Positions 9,469 to 18,301 of a stretch of 64,000 bases of DNA are shown here, piece after piece (the first letter of the stretch is position 1; every line of letters begins with the position of its first letter). Both the position numbers and the translations under genes were made by a program. The notes under the pieces are model-generated. The model did no database searches and was not told where the DNA came from. It saw only the letters and a program-made list of their open reading frames with translations. The stretch comes from Haloferula luteola (GTDB lineage: Bacteria; Verrucomicrobiota; Verrucomicrobiia; Verrucomicrobiales; Akkermansiaceae): assembly GCF_014201715.1 (NCBI RefSeq), contig NZ_JACHFD010000003.1, positions 186,001 through 250,000 of the forward strand. Reading direction: 5' to 3'.

Positions 9469-11310
9469 TCACTTCTCCCCATTGACGAGACTCTCTGCCT
9501 GTGATTGAACCCGTCCGACCCAAACCCCAACGGATCGGTGGCTGAGTGGTCGAAAGCACTCCTTTGCTAAAGGAACGTACCTCAAAAGGGTACCGAGGGT
9601 TCGAATCCCTCCCGGTCCGCCACTTTTGTCGTTACTACGAACTCCCGGTGCCTCACCGGAGTTTTTCAGCATTTCTCTGATGCTGAGATGGTTGGAAAAC
9701 ATGCGGAGATCCACCCGATACCATGCAGTTCGGATTTGGGTCGCAAAGGCCTCCTTCTCGCACGGCAACTCGTCCTTTTCCGGGTCGAAGCGCGATACTT
9801 GGATGTCCTTCACCAGCAGCCCCATCAGCTCGGACTGTTCCTCGAACGTCAGCTCCTCAAACAAGGCCGAAAACTCCGTGAGTTTCTCGCAGATGATCCC
9901 CTCATCCGTAACGAGATTGCGCCGGTGATCGATCTCCATCCGCAGCTTTTGCCGCTCATCCTGAAGCTCGGACTTCCGCTTTCCGGCTACATTGGCCTCT
10001 TGGATGAAATCGGCTGAGAGATTTTTCAACTCCGGACGTTTCGCCAACCCGATCAGGCGGGAAACTTCCTCCGAAACGGCAGCAAGTTCTTTCTCAATCT
10101 CCCTGAGCTTGCGCTCAAAGGGCTTGGACGCTTGCTCCTGCTCCTTTCGTGCCGATTCCGTTGTGGCCCGGATGATTTCAGGATGTCGACCCAGCTCGCC
10201 CATGAGCTTGAGGATGAAGTCCTCGAACGCGCGGCCAGGCAGGTTTCGCAACTCGCACGCCGCCGTTTTGCCGTGCCTGTTGAGGTCTCCGCAAACGTAG
10301 TAAACGTATGGATTGCCGTCCTTGTCCTTCTTGCCCGCTGGTTTCGGGATCAAATGCTTGCCGCAATGTCCGCAGCGCAGAATCCCCTTGAGAAGCATCT
10401 GGTGGCGATTGCGCTGCCGCATCTTCGTGTCTCCCGCTGGGAGCTTCACTCCAGCGGTGAGAACCTTGTTGGCTGCTTTCCAGAGCTTCTCATCGACGAG
10501 CGCCTCGTGCCGCGCGGGATACTCCGCGCCATCATGAACGATCACTCCGCGATACAGAGCGTTGCGCACCATGCGCGACACATTTTGTCCAACCCACCGC
10601 TTGCCGCCGGTGGCTTTCGCTGAGCCGTCCTTGCGGGTCTCGGTGCGCCGCTTGGTGCGAACACCATCCTTGTTGAGCTGTCGCGCGACCGCCACCAAAG
10701 GCGCTCCCCCAGCAATCTGTTCGAAGATCGAACGAACAATCACCGCTTCTTCTTCGAGCGGATGGAGAAGCTTGTCTTCCACCGAATAGCTGTAGCCGAA
10801 TGGCGGATTGCCTCCGTTCCAATAGCCTCGCTTGCTCCGCTCCGCGATCTTGTCCGAAACCCGTTGTCGGGTGAGCTGGCGTTCCCATTGGGCCAAAGAA
10901 AGCAACAGATTGAGGAAGAGTTCACCGGTCGGGGTATCGGTCGAGAAAGCCTCAGTGGCTGAAACGAACACCACTCCATGGCGCTCGAAGATTTGATGCA
11001 GCTCGTAGAAATCGGCAATGGAACGCGTGAGGCGGTCGAGCCGATAGACAACGACGGCTTGAATATGTCCCGCCTCGATGTCCGCCAGCAGCTCCTTGAG
11101 CGCCGGGCGATCCGTCGATCCCCCCGAATAGCCACCGTCCTCGTAAATCCGCCCCAGTGACCAGCCGTCCGGCTCCTTCATCGCCACGGCGTGTTTGCAG
11201 ATACCCGCCTGGGATTCCAGCGTGCTGAAATCCTTGCCCTGCCATTGCTCGTCGGTGGAACAGCGGCAGTAAATCGCCGCCCGAATTGCCCGTGATCCGT
11301 TCGATTTCAC
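9469..11310 (-). CDS. Large serine recombinase (integrase) reading through the tRNA-Ser
   Basis: 613 residues. The resolvase-type catalytic domain has nucleophile Ser18 in YCRCSTDEQ and YRLDRLTR at 89-96. A recombinase domain is followed by a zinc ribbon (CGHCG 313-317, with Cys340 and Cys352) and a coiled coil at about 385-460, the layout of phage and ICE large serine integrases. Residues 563-593 are the antisense of tRNA-Ser (GGPGGIRTLGTLLRYVP...), so the annotated C-terminus exists only in the integrated state. In the predicted excised circle the frame would instead end after GGPGGI with AFAPLRPFQNVLAPLAG and a stop from the right border, about 586 residues. Confidence 0.9.
   Translation of the reverse strand: MKSNGSRAIRAAIYCRCSTDEQWQGKDFSTLESQAGICKHAVAMKEPDGWSLGRIYEDGGYSGGSTDRPALKELLADIEAGHIQAVVVYRLDRLTRSIADFYELHQIFERHGVVFVSATEAFSTDTPTGELFLNLLLSLAQWERQLTRQRVSDKIAERSKRGYWNGGNPPFGYSYSVEDKLLHPLEEEAVIVRSIFEQIAGGAPLVAVARQLNKDGVRTKRRTETRKDGSAKATGGKRWVGQNVSRMVRNALYRGVIVHDGAEYPARHEALVDEKLWKAANKVLTAGVKLPAGDTKMRQRNRHQMLLKGILRCGHCGKHLIPKPAGKKDKDGNPYVYYVCGDLNRHGKTAACELRNLPGRAFEDFILKLMGELGRHPEIIRATTESARKEQEQASKPFERKLREIEKELAAVSEEVSRLIGLAKRPELKNLSADFIQEANVAGKRKSELQDERQKLRMEIDHRRNLVTDEGIICEKLTEFSALFEELTFEEQSELMGLLVKDIQVSRFDPEKDELPCEKEAFATQIRTAWYRVDLRMFSNHLSIREMLKNSGEAPGVRSNDKSGGPGGIRTLGTLLRYVPLAKECFRPLSHRSVGVWVGRVQSQAESLVNGEK
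9532..9622 (+). tRNA. tRNA-Ser (anticodon GCU), CCA encoded
   Basis: A full cloverleaf can be drawn: acceptor GGATCGG (9532-9538) pairs with CCGGTCC (9612-9618), discriminator G 9619, CCA 9620-9622. The anticodon loop TTGCTAA (9564-9570) gives GCU, reading AGC/AGU serine codons. A long variable arm follows (ACGTACC...GGGTACC) and the T arm is GAGGG-TTCGAAT-CCCTC. One C-A mismatch occurs at the base of the anticodon stem. The 3' end is the integration site of the island to its right. Confidence 0.95.
9604..9622 (+). other. Left attachment site in tRNA-Ser 3' end
   Basis: These last 19 bases of the tRNA (AATCCCTCCCGGTCCGCCA) recur with one substitution at 29681-29699 in the same orientation. 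A serine recombinase gene abuts the tRNA. This fits attL of a roughly 20-kb integrated element; the assignment is inferred. Confidence 0.65.
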
Positions 11311-11723: not shown

Positions 11724-11821
11724 CGTCGCAATTGAATACGGGAAACGGGGCGAGGGTGGCCGGAGCCGCCGAGGATTTGCTTCCCTGGACCGTCTTGCTT
11801 CAGCAACGCAAGTCAGTTAGA

Positions 11822-11844
11822 TTTGATTCCATATTGGAATCAAA
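11822..11844. promoter_or_regulatory. Palindromic operator candidate
   Basis: TTTGATTCCA, spacer TAT, TGGAATCAAA: a perfect 10-bp dyad. It sits between the divergent winged-helix gene and the membrane-protein gene, ending 15 bp before the latter's TTG start, just upstream of its GGAG. Bound protein would block that gene. Confidence 0.5.
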
Positions 11845-11859
11845 TGTGGGAGATGAGAT

Positions 11860-12330
11860 TTGGGAATTCCAGAGTGGATAGCGGTGATTTCGGTGGTGGT
11901 GGCTTTGCTGTCGCTCGCAGTTCAACAGCACTGGACGCGCCAACAAGCAAAGGCCGATGCCAGAGCAAAGCAATACGACCGCACTCAAGCTCTAATTCTT
12001 AGAACCATGGATGATCCCGAACTGCTGCTAGCGATCAGTGGAGGCTCATCCGAAGATCAAAAGCAACGACGTTTCAGGCAGCTTTGGGTCAATCACGTCG
12101 AAATGTTTTTCCGCCAGCGACACCTTTTTGATCGTCCTCATTGGAAAGGCACGATCTATGATATTCGCGATTTCATGAATATGCCCGTCATGCGCGGGCA
12201 TTGGCTTGCTCACAAGGATTACTACGCGCCGGATTTTCAGCGATTCATGGAGTGTGAGGTATACGCGGGAAAGGCGGAACCTCGGCAGGCCGAGGCTCCG
12301 CCTGAAGAGCCTCAGGCCTCGACAACTTGA
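11860..12330 (+). CDS. Small membrane-anchored protein of unknown function
   Basis: 156 residues. Start TTG at 11860, supported by GGAG at 11849-11852 and by an in-frame stop at 11854-11856. One N-terminal transmembrane helix (WIAVISVVVALLSLAVQQ) is followed by a soluble part with charged and aromatic residues (RRFRQLWVNHVEMFFRQRHLF, HWLAHKDYYAPDFQRFME). This resembles the many bacterial single-helix proteins with a DUF6082-like helical domain, but I cannot name it. Its 3' end overlaps that of the convergent small gene at 12312-12536. Confidence 0.6.
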   Translation: MGIPEWIAVISVVVALLSLAVQQHWTRQQAKADARAKQYDRTQALILRTMDDPELLLAISGGSSEDQKQRRFRQLWVNHVEMFFRQRHLFDRPHWKGTIYDIRDFMNMPVMRGHWLAHKDYYAPDFQRFMECEVYAGKAEPRQAEAPPEEPQASTT

Positions 12331-12536
12331 GCCGCAATTTTCTTCAATACCGAAAGCGGGATGCGAACAAAATCCTCGCCTGGAGGCGCGGACAGCTCGG
12401 CTCGTTCGTGATCCCCCAGCTTGTAGCCTTGCACGAATGCATGCTCCCCTTTGGTGAGGATGGCTGCGGGGCACATTCCGCCATTACACAGCTCAGACAT
12501 CGGGCCGTTTTCTCCCAGGATCTTCTGTATCGTCAT
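12312..12536 (-). CDS. Small hypothetical protein beside an invertible cassette
   Basis: 74 residues from ATG 12536 (MTIQKILGENGPMSELCNGG...). Features are a Cys pair in LCNGGMCPAAILTKGEHAFVQGY and a C-terminal helix (VRIPLSVLKKIAAQV). I do not recognise a family, though the layout recalls short partner proteins of HTH regulators. Its start lies 41 bp from the left inverted site (12577-12604), so inversion of the cassette would bring an outward promoter towards it. A longer frame to 12698 reads into the recombinase gene and is rejected. Confidence 0.55.
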   Translation of the reverse strand: MTIQKILGENGPMSELCNGGMCPAAILTKGEHAFVQGYKLGDHERAELSAPPGEDFVRIPLSVLKKIAAQVVEA

Positions 12537-12576
12537 GATTGTAAGTGATTTGATGATTTTGTGCTTTGTATGCGAT

Positions 12577-12604
12577 AAAGTGAACGGAATAAGGATTCTG
12601 TTCA
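12577..12604 (+). repeat. Left inverted recombination site
   Basis: Begins AAAGTGAACGGAAT and ends ATTCTGTTCA. The arms TGAACgGAAT and ATTCtGTTCA are inverted around AAGG, like a tyrosine-recombinase crossover site. It differs from the right copy only at its 11th base. Confidence 0.7.
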
Positions 12605-12616
12605 GGAGGGATGAAA

Positions 12617-13195
12617 ATGAGGTCGTTATATGACGGCAGAGGTGATCGAAAATATGTCTCGTTTGCCGAGAGGTTGGCCTTTGGTGAGGCGGCCTCAAAA
12701 TTGCCCAATTTGAAGCACCAGCTCTTTTGTTTGGTGCTGCTCAACACGGGTTGCAGGATCTCCGAAGCCCTTTCTCTGCGGCGCGCTCACGTGGATGTTG
12801 GCGGTGGTGCTCTTGTGTTCCTGACGCTCAAGCAGCGGGGAGAGGTCAACTATCGCCCAGTCCCGGTACAAGACTCTCTGATCGAGGCTCTCATGGTGCT
12901 ACCCACCTCAGAGGATGGCCGTCTTTTTGACTTTGGCCGGACAACGGGATGGAAGCTCGTGAAATGGTGTATGGACTCAGCGGGGATAAGCGGCATCAAA
13001 GCAACGCCCAAGGGGTTGCGCCACGGCTACGCAATTGGCTGCGTGTCCATTGGTCTGTTCCAGGGGGACATTCAGGGCCTGCTTGGTCACAAACGACCTG
13101 AAACCACCGCAATCTACACCACCCACATCACCGAGGACATTCGCGGCAAATTCCACAAAATCTGGATCGGAGGTGGCGCTCAAACAAAGTCATGA
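12617..13195 (+). CDS. Short tyrosine recombinase (catalytic domain only)
   Basis: About 192 residues, only the C-terminal catalytic fold; the N-terminal SAM-like core-binding domain of Xer and phage integrases is missing. Counting from the upstream ATG 12611, the active-site set is Arg49 (TGCRISEAL), Lys74, Lys134 in KGLRHG at the usual His position, Arg137, His160 (LLGHKRPETT) and Tyr169. I prefer ATG 12617 because AGGAGG at 12604-12609 is correctly spaced for it. Single-domain recombinases of this type act on short inverted sites, and such sites flank this gene. Confidence 0.85.
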   Translation: MRSLYDGRGDRKYVSFAERLAFGEAASKLPNLKHQLFCLVLLNTGCRISEALSLRRAHVDVGGGALVFLTLKQRGEVNYRPVPVQDSLIEALMVLPTSEDGRLFDFGRTTGWKLVKWCMDSAGISGIKATPKGLRHGYAIGCVSIGLFQGDIQGLLGHKRPETTAIYTTHITEDIRGKFHKIWIGGGAQTKS

Positions 13196-13233
13196 GGAAG
13201 CCGCCTACGATGGTAGGCGTAGAATCATTTTCC

Positions 13234-13263
13234 TTGAGGAAGAGGCCGCGAATCGGGTAAGAT
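13234..13263 (+). promoter_or_regulatory. Outward promoter inside the invertible cassette
   Basis: TTGAGG (13234-13239), 18 bp, TAAGAT (13258-13263). It points right through the 13272-13299 site. If the cassette inverts it would point left to the small gene at 12312-12536. Confidence 0.45.
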
Positions 13264-13271
13264 TGAAGGCG

Positions 13272-13299
13272 TGAACAGAATCCTTATTTCGTTCACTTT
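13272..13299 (-). repeat. Right inverted recombination site
   Basis: Reverse complement of the left site with one substitution (GGAAT to GAAAT in one arm). It lies 77 bp after the recombinase stop codon. Confidence 0.7.
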
Positions 13300-13490
13300 C
13301 AAGAGGAAATCGCCGCCAAGTGATGACGGTGGAAAGGAAAAGAATTAGGCGGGGAAAAGAGTCGGGTATCGATCCCCGGCCCCCTACACACGACCCGCCT
13401 TTTGGGCGTAATGGCGCGAAGGAGATCAGATCGGATGTATCGTCACCTTCGTTGCCGTTGCGTTCCCCGATTTTTTGGAGGAGAACTTCT

Positions 13491-13610
13491 ATGCCCGATC
13501 AATTCATCCCGTCGCCTAGGCTGATGCTCGCTCTGGAGTGGTTGGAGCAGTATCTGGATGAGGTGGTGGAGTCGCTTGATCTCTTGTCGATCGACAGCAC
13601 GCGCCATTGA
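13491..13610 (+). CDS. 39-residue small protein
   Basis: An ATG at 13491 is preceded by GGAGGAG (13477-13483) at ideal spacing. The product (MPDQFIPSPRLMLALEWLEQ...) has one predicted amphipathic helix rich in Leu, Trp and Glu. It is unrecognised. The frame continues upstream to 13320, but that part is arginine-rich and lacks a ribosome-binding site. It could be driven by the outward cassette promoter. Confidence 0.45.
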   Translation: MPDQFIPSPRLMLALEWLEQYLDEVVESLDLLSIDSTRH

Positions 13611-13755
13611 GGCGCGTGGGAGTTTTCTCGAACTGGCTTTATGGGGCCTACTCGAAAACACCCAAGCACGCACTGCTGCCGAGCGGTCGTCCCGTGTCGC
13701 CTTCGTCCCCGCCGCAACGGTGTTCCGTCCCCGCGAAGACGCGGCGGCCCAGAAA

Positions 13756-13993: not shown

Positions 13994-14167
13994 ATGACTC
14001 ACCGCAATTACTTTGACCCTCCGCCAACTGAGGCGGCGCGAACTGGTCCACCGGCCCCCGACCTCTATTGTCTGAGCCGAGAGCTTTTTGGCGGCTCAAA
14101 GGGCGTGGATTTGGAGGCTCCAACTCGTCAAACCTCCCGCAACCCTGCTCGGAGCCCAAAACTCTAG
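13994..14167 (+). CDS. 57-residue small protein candidate
   Basis: ATG 13994 is preceded by AAAGGAG (13981-13987) at good spacing; the TAG is in the first 27-bp repeat. The product (MTHRNYFDPPPTEAARTGPP...) is proline- and arginine-rich with no recognisable fold. The ribosome-binding site is the main support. Confidence 0.35.
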   Translation: MTHRNYFDPPPTEAARTGPPAPDLYCLSRELFGGSKGVDLEAPTRQTSRNPARSPKL

Positions 14168-14241
14168 CGGCTCAGTAGAGCCGAGAAACTCTAGCGGCTC
14201 AGTAGAGCCGAGAAACTCTAGCGGCTCAGTAGAGCCGAGAC
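14161..14241 (+). repeat. Three tandem 27-bp repeats, each a hairpin
   Basis: Units start at 14161, 14188 and 14215. Each contains CGGCTC-AGTA-GAGCCG, a 6-bp stem with a tetraloop, joined by GAGAAACTCTAG-type linkers. The units are essentially identical. Such arrays occur at replication, partition or protein-binding loci. Confidence 0.85.
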
Positions 14242-14261
14242 ACAATACCCTAACGCTGCGC

Positions 14262-15490: not shown

Positions 15491-15590
15491 CAAGGCGTCA
15501 AGAATCCCCCGCAAGGCCCGGCCTCCTCGTTCGGGGGAAATGGGGGGGGGCAAAAGAGACCGGGGCTTGCGGGGGATTCTTGACGCCTTG
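15491..15590. repeat. 31-bp near-perfect inverted repeat
   Basis: Arms 15491-15521 and 15560-15590 match at 30 of 31 positions (CAAGGCGTCAAGAATCCCCC... and its complement), separated by 38 bp that contain a G10 run. It starts 11 bp after a stop codon. It lacks a T-tract, so it is more like element ends or a cruciform than a terminator. Confidence 0.8.
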
Positions 15591-16879: not shown

Positions 16880-17182
16880 ATGGAACTTCAAACGCCTCCA
16901 AGCGACGCTCAGCGCCCGTATTCTTGCACTACTTTAGCGGACCGCTGGGGTGTGTGTCGACAAACCATCCACAACATGATTCGGCAAAATCGAATCGAAA
17001 ACACCTTCACGGTGGGAAACATGATTAGAATCCCTGCATGGGAAGTAAGGAGAATTGAAAAATGTGGAATGACCACCCCGTCCTCTATCGAGGAAAATAC
17101 TACGCCGTCAGTGGCAGCGGAAACAACAAACGAAGAAGATCGCTTTCAACGACTAAGTTGGACATGGCGCGGAGTCGACTAG
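16880..17182 (+). CDS. Excisionase-like helix-turn-helix protein
   Basis: 100 residues with a MerR/Xis-type HTH: CTTLADRWGVCRQTIHNMIRQNRIENTFTVGNMIRIPAWEVRRIE. Such proteins direct integrases towards excision. Its last 121 bp overlap the start of int in another frame, typical of xis-int pairs. The C-terminal tail is acidic, with no recognisable domain. Confidence 0.7.
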   Translation: MELQTPPSDAQRPYSCTTLADRWGVCRQTIHNMIRQNRIENTFTVGNMIRIPAWEVRRIEKCGMTTPSSIEENTTPSVAAETTNEEDRFQRLSWTWRGVD

Positions 17183-18192
17183 CCGACCTCATCGCTGGGA
17201 GCCGTAAGGCCCCAAGTCTGATCAACGAGATCTTCGAACTCTATCGGGAGCACAAAGAAGACAGCCGCGACCGGCTAAGATACAAATGGAAGGTGCTTGA
17301 ACCTTATTTCGGCCATCTTCGACCAGATCAGGTCTCCCGAAAGGTCTGTCTTGCCTATCGCGAAGCCAGGCAAGTTGGCAACGGGACAATCATCAGGGAA
17401 CTGGGAGTTCTTCGGGCTGCCCTTCGTTGGCACGATCCCAATACCCCCGCAGTGTTCGAGTTCCCGGCGTCTCCTCCGCCTCGTCATCGCCATTTGAGCC
17501 GTGAAGAGGTTACGAAACTGATCGATGCCTGTGAGCAGCCCCACGTTCGGCTTTACATCGTGCTGGCACTCTGCACGGGAGCGAGGAAAGGGGCTTTGCT
17601 CGACCTTACTTGGGATCGAGTCGATTTTGACAATGAGCTGATCGACTTGGGCGTCGGTGAAGGTAACAAGGGCCGTGCCACTGTTCCTATCAATCGGACT
17701 GCACTGGAGACCCTCAAAGAAGCCAGAAAGGGAACTCTGAGCAATCATGTGATCGAGTACCAAGGCAAGGCTCTGAAGGACATCAAGCGCGGCTTCCAGA
17801 CGGCGGTTAAAGCGGCTGGTCTGAAAGATGTCTACCCACACGCACTCCGACATACCGCTGCCGTTTGGATGGCCGAGGATGGCGTCCCGATGTCAGAAAT
17901 TGCCCAGTTTCTTGGGCACAGCTCTACAAGGGTGACCGAGAAGGTTTACGCACGCTACACCCCGAACTATTTACGGAAGGCAGCTACTTCGTTGGAGTTG
18001 GGTGCAATTGCACCCTTTTTTCGAGGTGACACCGGGGAGCGCAATCTTCGCAAACCTAAGGTGAGTATGGCGCGAGTGACGGGACTTGAACCCGCGGCCT
18101 CCGCCGTGACAGGAACACGGGAGCGCGTCCATATGAGAAAATCCGTGTCAATCGAGTTCAACCGGCATCCATTTCGGACCATCTTGAAGTAG
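17062..18192 (+). CDS. Tyrosine-recombinase integrase of the mobilizable element
   Basis: 376 residues. A core-binding domain covers roughly residues 50-130. The catalytic domain has Arg in CTGARKGALLDLTW, HALRH, LGHSSTRVTEKVYARY (nucleophile Tyr). The last codons (MARVTGLEPAASAVTG) are the antisense of a tRNA-Asp 3' end, so here too the frame overlaps an attachment site. A terminator-like hairpin (18000-18021) lies inside the frame before that site. It probably catalyses integration at a tRNA-Asp gene; no intact tRNA-Asp is in the window. Confidence 0.9.
   Translation: MWNDHPVLYRGKYYAVSGSGNNKRRRSLSTTKLDMARSRLADLIAGSRKAPSLINEIFELYREHKEDSRDRLRYKWKVLEPYFGHLRPDQVSRKVCLAYREARQVGNGTIIRELGVLRAALRWHDPNTPAVFEFPASPPPRHRHLSREEVTKLIDACEQPHVRLYIVLALCTGARKGALLDLTWDRVDFDNELIDLGVGEGNKGRATVPINRTALETLKEARKGTLSNHVIEYQGKALKDIKRGFQTAVKAAGLKDVYPHALRHTAAVWMAEDGVPMSEIAQFLGHSSTRVTEKVYARYTPNYLRKAATSLELGAIAPFFRGDTGERNLRKPKVSMARVTGLEPAASAVTGTRERVHMRKSVSIEFNRHPFRTILK
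18000..18021 (+). terminator. Terminator-like palindrome inside int
   Basis: GGGTGC-AATT-GCACCC followed by TTTTTT. The same palindrome recurs at 18208-18225 as GGGGTGCAATTGCACCCC, the two copies flanking the tRNA-Asp fragment. Confidence 0.5.
18068..18113 (-). other. tRNA-Asp 3' fragment (integrase attachment site)
   Basis: Read on the minus strand, the 46 bases run from CCTGTCACGG (anticodon loop, GUC) through the T arm GCGGG-TTCAAGT-CCCGT to the acceptor end CACTCGC, G and CCA. The 5' half of a tRNA is absent: no GCGAGTG acceptor strand lies upstream. This is an att core of the adjacent integrase, not a functional tRNA. Confidence 0.75.
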
Positions 18193-18301
18193 AACATCCA
18201 GTGAACAGGGGTGCAATTGCACCCCCGACCGCCGCCCGTCGCGACCGCTTTCGATCCAGGCGGCAATTCAAGGGTGCATCACGATTACCTTTGCCTATCC
18301 C

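What the first reader, a model, noticed from the sequence alone, without database searches (positions are those of the whole stretch)
12577..13299. Self-invertible promoter cassette with a minimal tyrosine recombinase
A catalytic-domain-only tyrosine recombinase lies between 28-bp inverted sites (27/28 identical), each a dyad TGAACgGAAT-AAGG-ATTCtGTTCA like a crossover site. A TTGAGG-N18-TAAGAT promoter points out through the right site; inversion would aim it at the small gene starting 41 bp outside the left site. The repeats and gene are seen; the switch is inferred. It could also be a mobile mini-element.
Basis: partly seen in the sequence, partly recalled or inferred. Interest (0 to 1): 0.78.

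Follow-up and report, generated by a model that had tools for sequence, protein, structure and literature searches.

The report
Self-flipping DNA cassette with defence cargo
A small bacterial DNA-recombining enzyme sits between two mirror-image copies of its own target site and probably flips the stretch that holds its gene, aiming a promoter at one neighbour or the other; in some relatives the same kind of stretch also carries whole anti-virus defence systems.

Summary
A 194-aa, catalytic-domain-only tyrosine recombinase (12611-13195) lies between 28-bp inverted sites (27/28). Comparison supports the switch and goes beyond it. Of 33 Verrucomicrobiota loci with relatives, 32 have an inverted site pair (27 strong, 5 weak). 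Site centres agree within a locus, not between loci. A promoter-like motif lies at the right inner end in 28 of 32 loci, at the left in 0 of 32, background 35 of 480. One locus (L078) is inverted against conserved flanks compared with its sister L074, and its outer half-sites stay with the flanks, as a crossover in the site centre predicts. In five loci the partner site is 1.4-9 kb away and the segment also holds cargo: complete Lamassu; Gabija plus other defence genes; a Ppl-like protein; a PDC-S01 ATPase; a PIN-domain protein. The window holds an empty version, one of two such copies in its genome, on integrative elements. Not shown: inversion of this copy, promoter activity, any control of defence. 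24 of 25 comparable loci stand in one orientation, so inversion is rare or disfavoured. New variant of the DNA-invertase switch; interesting for the defence cargo.

The parts
12577..12604 (+). Left inverted site (outer half AAAGTGAACGGAAT, inner half to the recombinase)
12611..13195 (+). Tyrosine recombinase, catalytic domain only, 194 aa (start more likely at 12617)
13234..13263 (+). Promoter-like TTGAGG-N18-TAAGAT pointing out through the right site
   Evidence: activity inferred
13272..13299 (-). Right inverted site
12312..12536 (-). Divergent 74-aa ORF (MTIQKILGENGP...), the gene that inversion would place behind the promoter; no Pfam, PHROG or PADLOC match
   Evidence: relatives beside the left site in L006, L007, L058, L060, L061, L180
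11860..12330 (+). DUF6082 gene of the conserved left flank
   Evidence: PF19560, E 1.5e-9
13340..13472 (+). Highly conserved, possibly structured stretch downstream of the promoter in the present orientation
13491..13610 (+). Short ORF (39 aa) downstream in the right flank

Best explanation
It is a self-inverting DNA switch. The tyrosine recombinase recognises the two inverted sites that flank its own gene, and strand exchange in their shared centre flips the segment between them (12577-13299) together with the recombinase gene. A promoter just inside the distal end fires outward. In the orientation seen it reads through the right site into the right flank (conserved stretch and short ORF); after inversion it would read through the left site into the divergent 74-aa gene. 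Such cassettes ride on integrative elements of Verrucomicrobiota. In some relatives the segment between the sites also holds anti-phage genes, so inversion would turn these around as well. Shown by sequence: site pairs, matching centres, the motif, one natural inversion in a relative, the cargo. Inferred: that this copy flips, that the motif is a working promoter, which gene is the target, and any effect on defence.
For: Inverted site pair in 32 of 33 loci (23 scored, two weak ones by eye, four far apart, three). Central 8 bp agree 7.96 of 8 within a locus, 3.27 of 8 between loci (23 loci). L078 is inverted against both flanks of its relatives; TGAACC marks the secreted-protein side and TGAAAC the other side in five of the six relatives in the common orientation, and in L078 they go with the flanks. 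L074 and L078 are sisters on the tree (99/83). Motif at the right inner end 28 of 32, left 0 of 32, background 35 of 480; an independent score against shuffles gave combined p 1.6e-6 right, 0.95 left (23 loci). Catalytic residues kept (R49, K74, R137, H160, Y169 invariant in 22 sequences, K134 nearly). Seven of 12 viral relatives scanned also have an inverted site pair, around a segment of about 110 bp upstream of the gene.
Against: The four closest loci and 24 of 25 loci with comparable flanks stand in one orientation. No inverted form of the window's own cassette was seen and no reads could be examined. L070 has no second site in its genome. L076 has TGAACC on both sides. The window's promoter match alone has p 0.095 and L083's best match 0.40; L058, L059, L069b and L081 lack the motif. 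In the contig-18 copy the ATG of the 74-aa ORF reads ATT. By eye a TTCACT-N17-CAAAAT starting in the outer half of the left site could drive the 74-aa gene in either orientation (not scored). Loci are related, so the p-values overstate.
Confidence: 0.75

Rival explanations
1. Cassette-exchange or cargo-capture slot. The paired sites serve mainly to swap the enclosed segment between elements by recombination at both sites; inversion is a by-product.
For: Cargo differs between loci while the left flank is conserved; the loaded state needs four changes on the tree, at least two of them forced by well-supported branches. A review passage on P2-like phages describes a fun gene flanked by inverted repeats that allow exchange by site-specific recombination (PMC8987985, passage).
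Against: The motif is kept beside the right site in empty and in all five loaded segments, which exchange does not need. Site centres differ between loci, which limits exchange between elements. The high identity of the two copies in this genome does not start or stop at the sites.
Confidence: 0.15
2. Mobile mini-element: the inverted sites are the ends of a small transposon-like unit.
For: Recombinase between inverted ends, two copies in the genome, cargo between the ends in five relatives.
Against: Both copies here, and loci in other species, share flanking genes in the same order; no target duplication; one relative shows plain inversion.
Confidence: 0.04
3. Multimer resolution or other maintenance function of the excised element; inversion has no regulatory role.
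For: Relatives on plasmids; the Sedimenticola plasmid has a single palindromic site in 33 kb.
Against: A pair in inverted orientation cannot resolve within one molecule and is kept in 32 of 33 loci; motif next to the right site.
Confidence: 0.06

Closest known systems
Hin-type invertible segment (Salmonella; recalled, plus a passage of PMC5903667 seen: recombinases lie occasionally within the segment, e.g. Hin)
   Same: Recombinase gene inside the segment it inverts, inverted sites, outward promoter
   Different: Serine recombinase in Hin, tyrosine recombinase here; here on integrative elements and with optional defence cargo
FimB/FimE and other fim-like tyrosine invertases
   Same: About 200-aa catalytic-domain-only tyrosine recombinases that invert a promoter segment
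   Different: In fim the recombinase genes lie outside the segment (recalled); the window protein scores 17.2 bits against the NCBIfam cut-off of 221
Phage phiCh1 Int1 inversion region (recalled, no call)
   Same: Tyrosine-type recombinase gene inside the invertible region
   Different: Exchanges ends of tail-fibre genes; no promoter switch or defence cargo that I know of
PinQ of the E. coli Qin prophage (PMC12529663; start of abstract and passages seen)
   Same: DNA inversion that affects phage resistance
   Different: Serine recombinase; inverts cryptic prophage DNA and changes phage adsorption
Akkermansia invertons (PMC11892184; passages seen)
   Same: Invertible DNA in a Verrucomicrobiota species
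   Different: Reported with their own repeat motif, one near autotransporter genes; I did not compare the sites
Plasmid and viral relatives of this recombinase
   Same: Same small KGLRHG-type recombinases; some with similar dyads (TGAAACA...TGTTTCA)
   Different: No strong inverted pair around the gene in 16 viral and 8 plasmid loci (L089 has one GC-rich score-14 match 1.2-1.5 kb off)

Membership tests
Tyrosine recombinase superfamily (PF00589) | Catalytic domain with R, K, H/K-x-x-R, H and Y | tested here: met
   PF00589 E 6.9e-12; R49, K74, R137, H160, Y169 invariant, K134 nearly, in 22 sequences
Fim-type invertase (NCBIfam PRK09870) | Passes the curated model | tested here: not met
   17.2 bits against cut-off 221
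Fim-type invertase (NCBIfam PRK09870) | Recombinase gene outside the invertible segment | tested here: not met
   gene lies between the sites
Hin-type inversion system | Serine recombinase | tested here: not met
Hin-type inversion system | Recombinase gene within the segment between inverted sites | tested here: met
Hin-type inversion system | Outward promoter at one end of the segment | tested here: inconclusive
   motif in 28 of 32 loci; activity not testable here
Phase-variable DNA inversion switch (general kind) | Both orientations occur | tested here: met
   1 of 25 comparable loci inverted (L078); between species, not within one strain, and not for the window copy
Phase-variable DNA inversion switch (general kind) | Inversion changes expression of a flanking gene | not testable with these tools
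   needs RNA or reporter data
Insertion sequence or transposon | Unrelated flanks and target duplication | tested here: not met
Plasmid multimer resolution system | Single site per replicon, acting between direct copies | tested here: not met
   inverted pair here; single site in the Sedimenticola plasmid

The most novel reading that the evidence does not exclude
A family of integrative elements in Verrucomicrobiota uses a tyrosine recombinase to flip a loadable slot that can hold complete anti-phage systems (Lamassu, Gabija and others), so that immunity is orientation-controlled and switched at random, while a built-in outward promoter toggles an uncharacterised flanking gene. The window holds the unloaded ground form of this slot.
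Probability: 0.35. Interest if true: 0.85.

Novelty: new variant of a known kind. Interest (0 to 1): 0.7.

Why it matters
Known inversion switches mostly control surface structures or restriction specificity (recalled). Here the invertible unit is a slot that travels on genomic islands and can enclose entire defence operons. If inversion changes their expression, bacteria would have a portable way to bet-hedge costly immunity, and recombinase genes found in defence islands would gain a concrete role. With one enzyme, two sites and one promoter motif it can be tested directly in a laboratory host.

Tried and rejected
Rejected: transposon or mini-element (flanks conserved; no target duplication). 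Chance repeat (score 25 against at most 13 in shuffles). A peculiarity of this genome alone.

Led nowhere: no family for the 74-aa gene or for the secreted left protein of the second group (Pfam, PHROGs, PADLOC; no plasmid match at E 0.01). A promoter reading from the left flank into the recombinase looks plausible in several loci of the window's group but is not above shuffles over 32 loci (combined p 0.56). The right-flank stretch has no Rfam match at gathering score and no compensatory changes in four sequences; a first fold with wrong coordinates for two sequences was discarded. A repeat search for a second copy of the tRNA ends found none of 14 nt or more in the two stretches given, so the islands' outer ends are not settled. 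The viral scan with the window protein alone confirmed no relative; with the alignment it gave 46 loci, of which I examined 16 and 12. Phage records gave 3 weak matches, not followed. Seven further plasmid hits and thousands of weaker ones were not examined beyond the 8 loci fetched.

Results against my reading: orientation bias 24 of 25. L070 without a second site. Five weak pairs: L059, L063 and L064 score 12-13, no better than the largest shuffle; L069a and L081 were recognised by eye because their centres match. The centre test used pairs chosen for matching and is partly circular; arms agree 84% within and 49% between loci. One search's motif (TTG box, 15-19 nt, then TAnnnn or nAnnnT, ending within about 10 nt of the site) was defined after seeing several loci, and the site edges of nine loci were set by hand.

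Full report
Observation. The window holds a 194-aa tyrosine recombinase ORF (12611-13195; PF00589 at residues 33-172, E 6.9e-12) between two 28-bp inverted sites, 12577-12604 and 13272-13299, 27/28 alike and 667 nt apart. Each site is itself a dyad. TTGAGG-N18-TAAGAT is at 13234-13263 and the divergent 74-aa ORF starts at 12536.

A second copy in the same genome. The site occurs in this genome only as two pairs. The pair on contig 18 encloses a recombinase 97% identical in protein. DNA identity is 97% over the recombinase gene, 67% over the neighbouring 74-aa and DUF6082 genes and 95% over the first 200 bp of the right flank, all in the same order and orientation. The window copy lies next to a large serine recombinase gene that overlaps a tRNA-Ser gene, the other copy near a tyrosine integrase gene that overlaps tRNA-Pro and tRNA-Arg genes. 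I read the module as cargo of two different integrative elements; their outer ends were not found.

Relatives. Luteolibacter pohnpeiensis (Verrucomicrobiota) has two more, 76 and 80% identical, with site pairs 666 and 667 nt apart, the same left genes and the same orientation. Whole-genome searches (own 1, genus 18, order 386, phylum 387, families 260 and 68, class 384 genomes; overlapping sets) gave 33 distinct loci at E up to 1e-25 (30, protein query) or 1e-30 (3 more, alignment query).

Paired sites are the rule. A scored search near the gene found pairs in 23 of 30 loci: 20 score 15 or more, three (L059, L063, L064) score 12-13. Two more weak pairs were recognised by matching centres (L069a, L081). 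In L060, L062, L065 and L075 the partner is 1.8-9 kb away and matches 24/24, 24/24, 28/28 and 27/28. Of 2000 random 24-mers in the five stretches, 5 had an inverted copy with up to 3 mismatches within 10 kb. The three loci added all have pairs. L070 has none in its genome. Total 32 of 33: 27 strong, 5 weak. By contrast none of 16 viral relatives had a pair of score 12 or more around the gene, and of 8 plasmid relatives only one had any match of 13 or more, GC-rich and 1.2-1.5 kb off; the Sedimenticola plasmid has one palindromic site in 33 kb. Seven of 12 viral loci, several of them near-copies, have an inverted pair around a segment of about 110 bp upstream of the gene; in five of these it holds a TTGACA. 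This suggests that inversion is an ability of the wider subfamily.

Site centres. In 23 pairs the central 8 bp agree at 7.96 of 8 positions within a locus and at 3.27 of 8 between loci; the arms agree at 84% and 49%. Equal centres within a pair are what strand exchange by tyrosine recombinases needs (recalled). The test is partly circular, because pairs were chosen for matching.

A natural inversion. In a second group of loci the left gene encodes a protein beginning MKLVHKSLT with a signal-peptide-like start (my reading) and the right gene a protein with a helix-turn-helix match just below the Pfam cut-off. In L078 the left flank is where the others have the right one and the reverse, on both sides, in DNA and protein comparison. 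In five of six relatives in the common orientation the outer half-site is TGAACC on the left and TGAAAC on the right; in L078 this is swapped with the flanks, as a crossover in the centre predicts; L076 has TGAACC on both sides. On the protein tree L078 pairs with L074 (99/83), which is in the common orientation. In L078 the motif TTGAGA-N17-TACAAT now points into the secreted-protein gene, whose start lies in the site. Both assemblies are drafts (370 and 60 contigs), and this compares species, not strains.

The promoter motif. A TTG box followed after 15-19 nt by TAnnnn or nAnnnT, ending within about 10 nt of the site, is present at the right inner end in 28 of 32 loci, including all five loaded ones, and at the left inner end in 0 of 32; the rate further inside the same strands is 35 of 480. 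Scoring against shuffles on 23 loci gave combined p 1.6e-6 right and 0.95 left; the window alone has p 0.095 and the median is 0.185. Loci are related and the motif was defined after seeing several, so these figures overstate. The motif stays beside the right site even when kilobases of cargo separate it from the recombinase gene.

Cargo. Five segments are loaded. L060/L154 (4.5 kb) encloses LmuA, LmuB and LmuC (PADLOC E 2.3e-46, 4.1e-126, 2.3e-10), a complete Lamassu set. L062/L155 (9.0 kb) encloses GajA and GajB (1.6e-223, 3.4e-203) and genes like QatC (1e-56), RmrA (8.5e-21) and, weakly, PDC-S70 (6.6e-5). L065/L157 (3.7 kb) holds an 889-aa protein like Ppl (1.5e-41) with a PHP and AAA match. 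L075/L158 (1.8 kb) holds a PDC-S01 protein (1.1e-79; AAA_14, DUF4143). L180 (1.4 kb) holds a PIN-domain protein (PF01850, 3.6e-15). Loaded and empty need four changes on the tree, of which well-supported branches force two. In some empty loci defence genes lie just outside the right site: HsdR-like (L007, L068) and a CHAT protein with a BovA match (L058).

Mechanism. Best supported is inversion of the segment by the enclosed recombinase, carrying an outward promoter from the right flank to the left gene and back. In the window the left gene would be the 74-aa protein; ORFs like it sit beside the left site in L006, L007, L058, L060, L061 and L180. In the contig-18 copy its ATG reads ATT, so expression there is doubtful. 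Shown by sequence: pairs, centres, motif, one inversion, cargo. Inferred: activity of the enzyme on these sites, promoter activity, target genes, any control of defence. The orientation bias (24 of 25) says that the inverted state is rare, short-lived or disfavoured; I cannot tell which.

Comparison with what is known. It works like the Hin segment but with a tyrosine recombinase; in domain make-up it resembles FimB/FimE but fails that curated model (17.2 against 221 bits) and has its gene inside the segment. A 2018 survey says that recombinases lie occasionally within the segment (PMC5903667, passage); a 2025 study reports Akkermansia invertons, one near autotransporter genes (PMC11892184, passages). 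Nine searches of an open full-text library listed no paper whose title or shown abstract start describes self-inverting tyrosine recombinase cassettes with defence cargo; most subscription papers and preprints are outside that library. I rate it a new variant of a known kind.

Noticed in passing
window 13340-13472; L005 7608-7743; L083 722-865; L084 7525-7672: Very conserved stretch right of the cassette with 39 predicted pairs and no compensatory changes in 4 sequences; maybe a regulatory RNA or leader of the short ORF at 13491. Matches in 2 of 386 genomes plus one short match in a third.
   Followed up: partly
window 11757-13666 against L005 9335-7418: Mosaic similarity of the two copies: nearly identical blocks (start of the DUF6082 gene, cassette, right flank) alternate with blocks of about 67% (rest of the DUF6082 gene, 74-aa gene).
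   Followed up: partly
window 9469-11310 and 9532-9622: Large serine recombinase ORF that runs through a tRNA-Ser gene on the other strand: probable integrase and attachment site of the island.
   Followed up: partly
window 15491-15590: 35-nt inverted repeat, 94% complementary, 30 nt between the arms.
   Followed up: no
window 14159-14243: Three tandem copies of a 27-bp unit.
   Followed up: no
window 18000-18224: Palindrome GGGTGCAATTGCACCC twice, 209 bp apart, at the end of the tyrosine integrase gene 17062-18192; ArdC, MobC and relaxase genes nearby point to a mobilizable element.
   Followed up: no
L105, L107, L108, L110, L111 (IMG/VR contigs): Relatives of the recombinase with an invertible-looking segment of about 110 bp upstream; in L105 and L111, whose ORFs I listed, an acyltransferase-like membrane protein (named from memory) lies on its other side: perhaps surface-antigen phase variation.
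   Followed up: partly
L088 4833-8107 (Methylobacterium radiotolerans plasmid): A relative of the recombinase sits two genes from a flagellin gene, with CBASS genes just beyond.
   Followed up: no
L079, L082 left flanks: Left neighbours of the cassette end in PEP-CTERM-like tails (read by eye); left genes of several loci look secreted.
   Followed up: no
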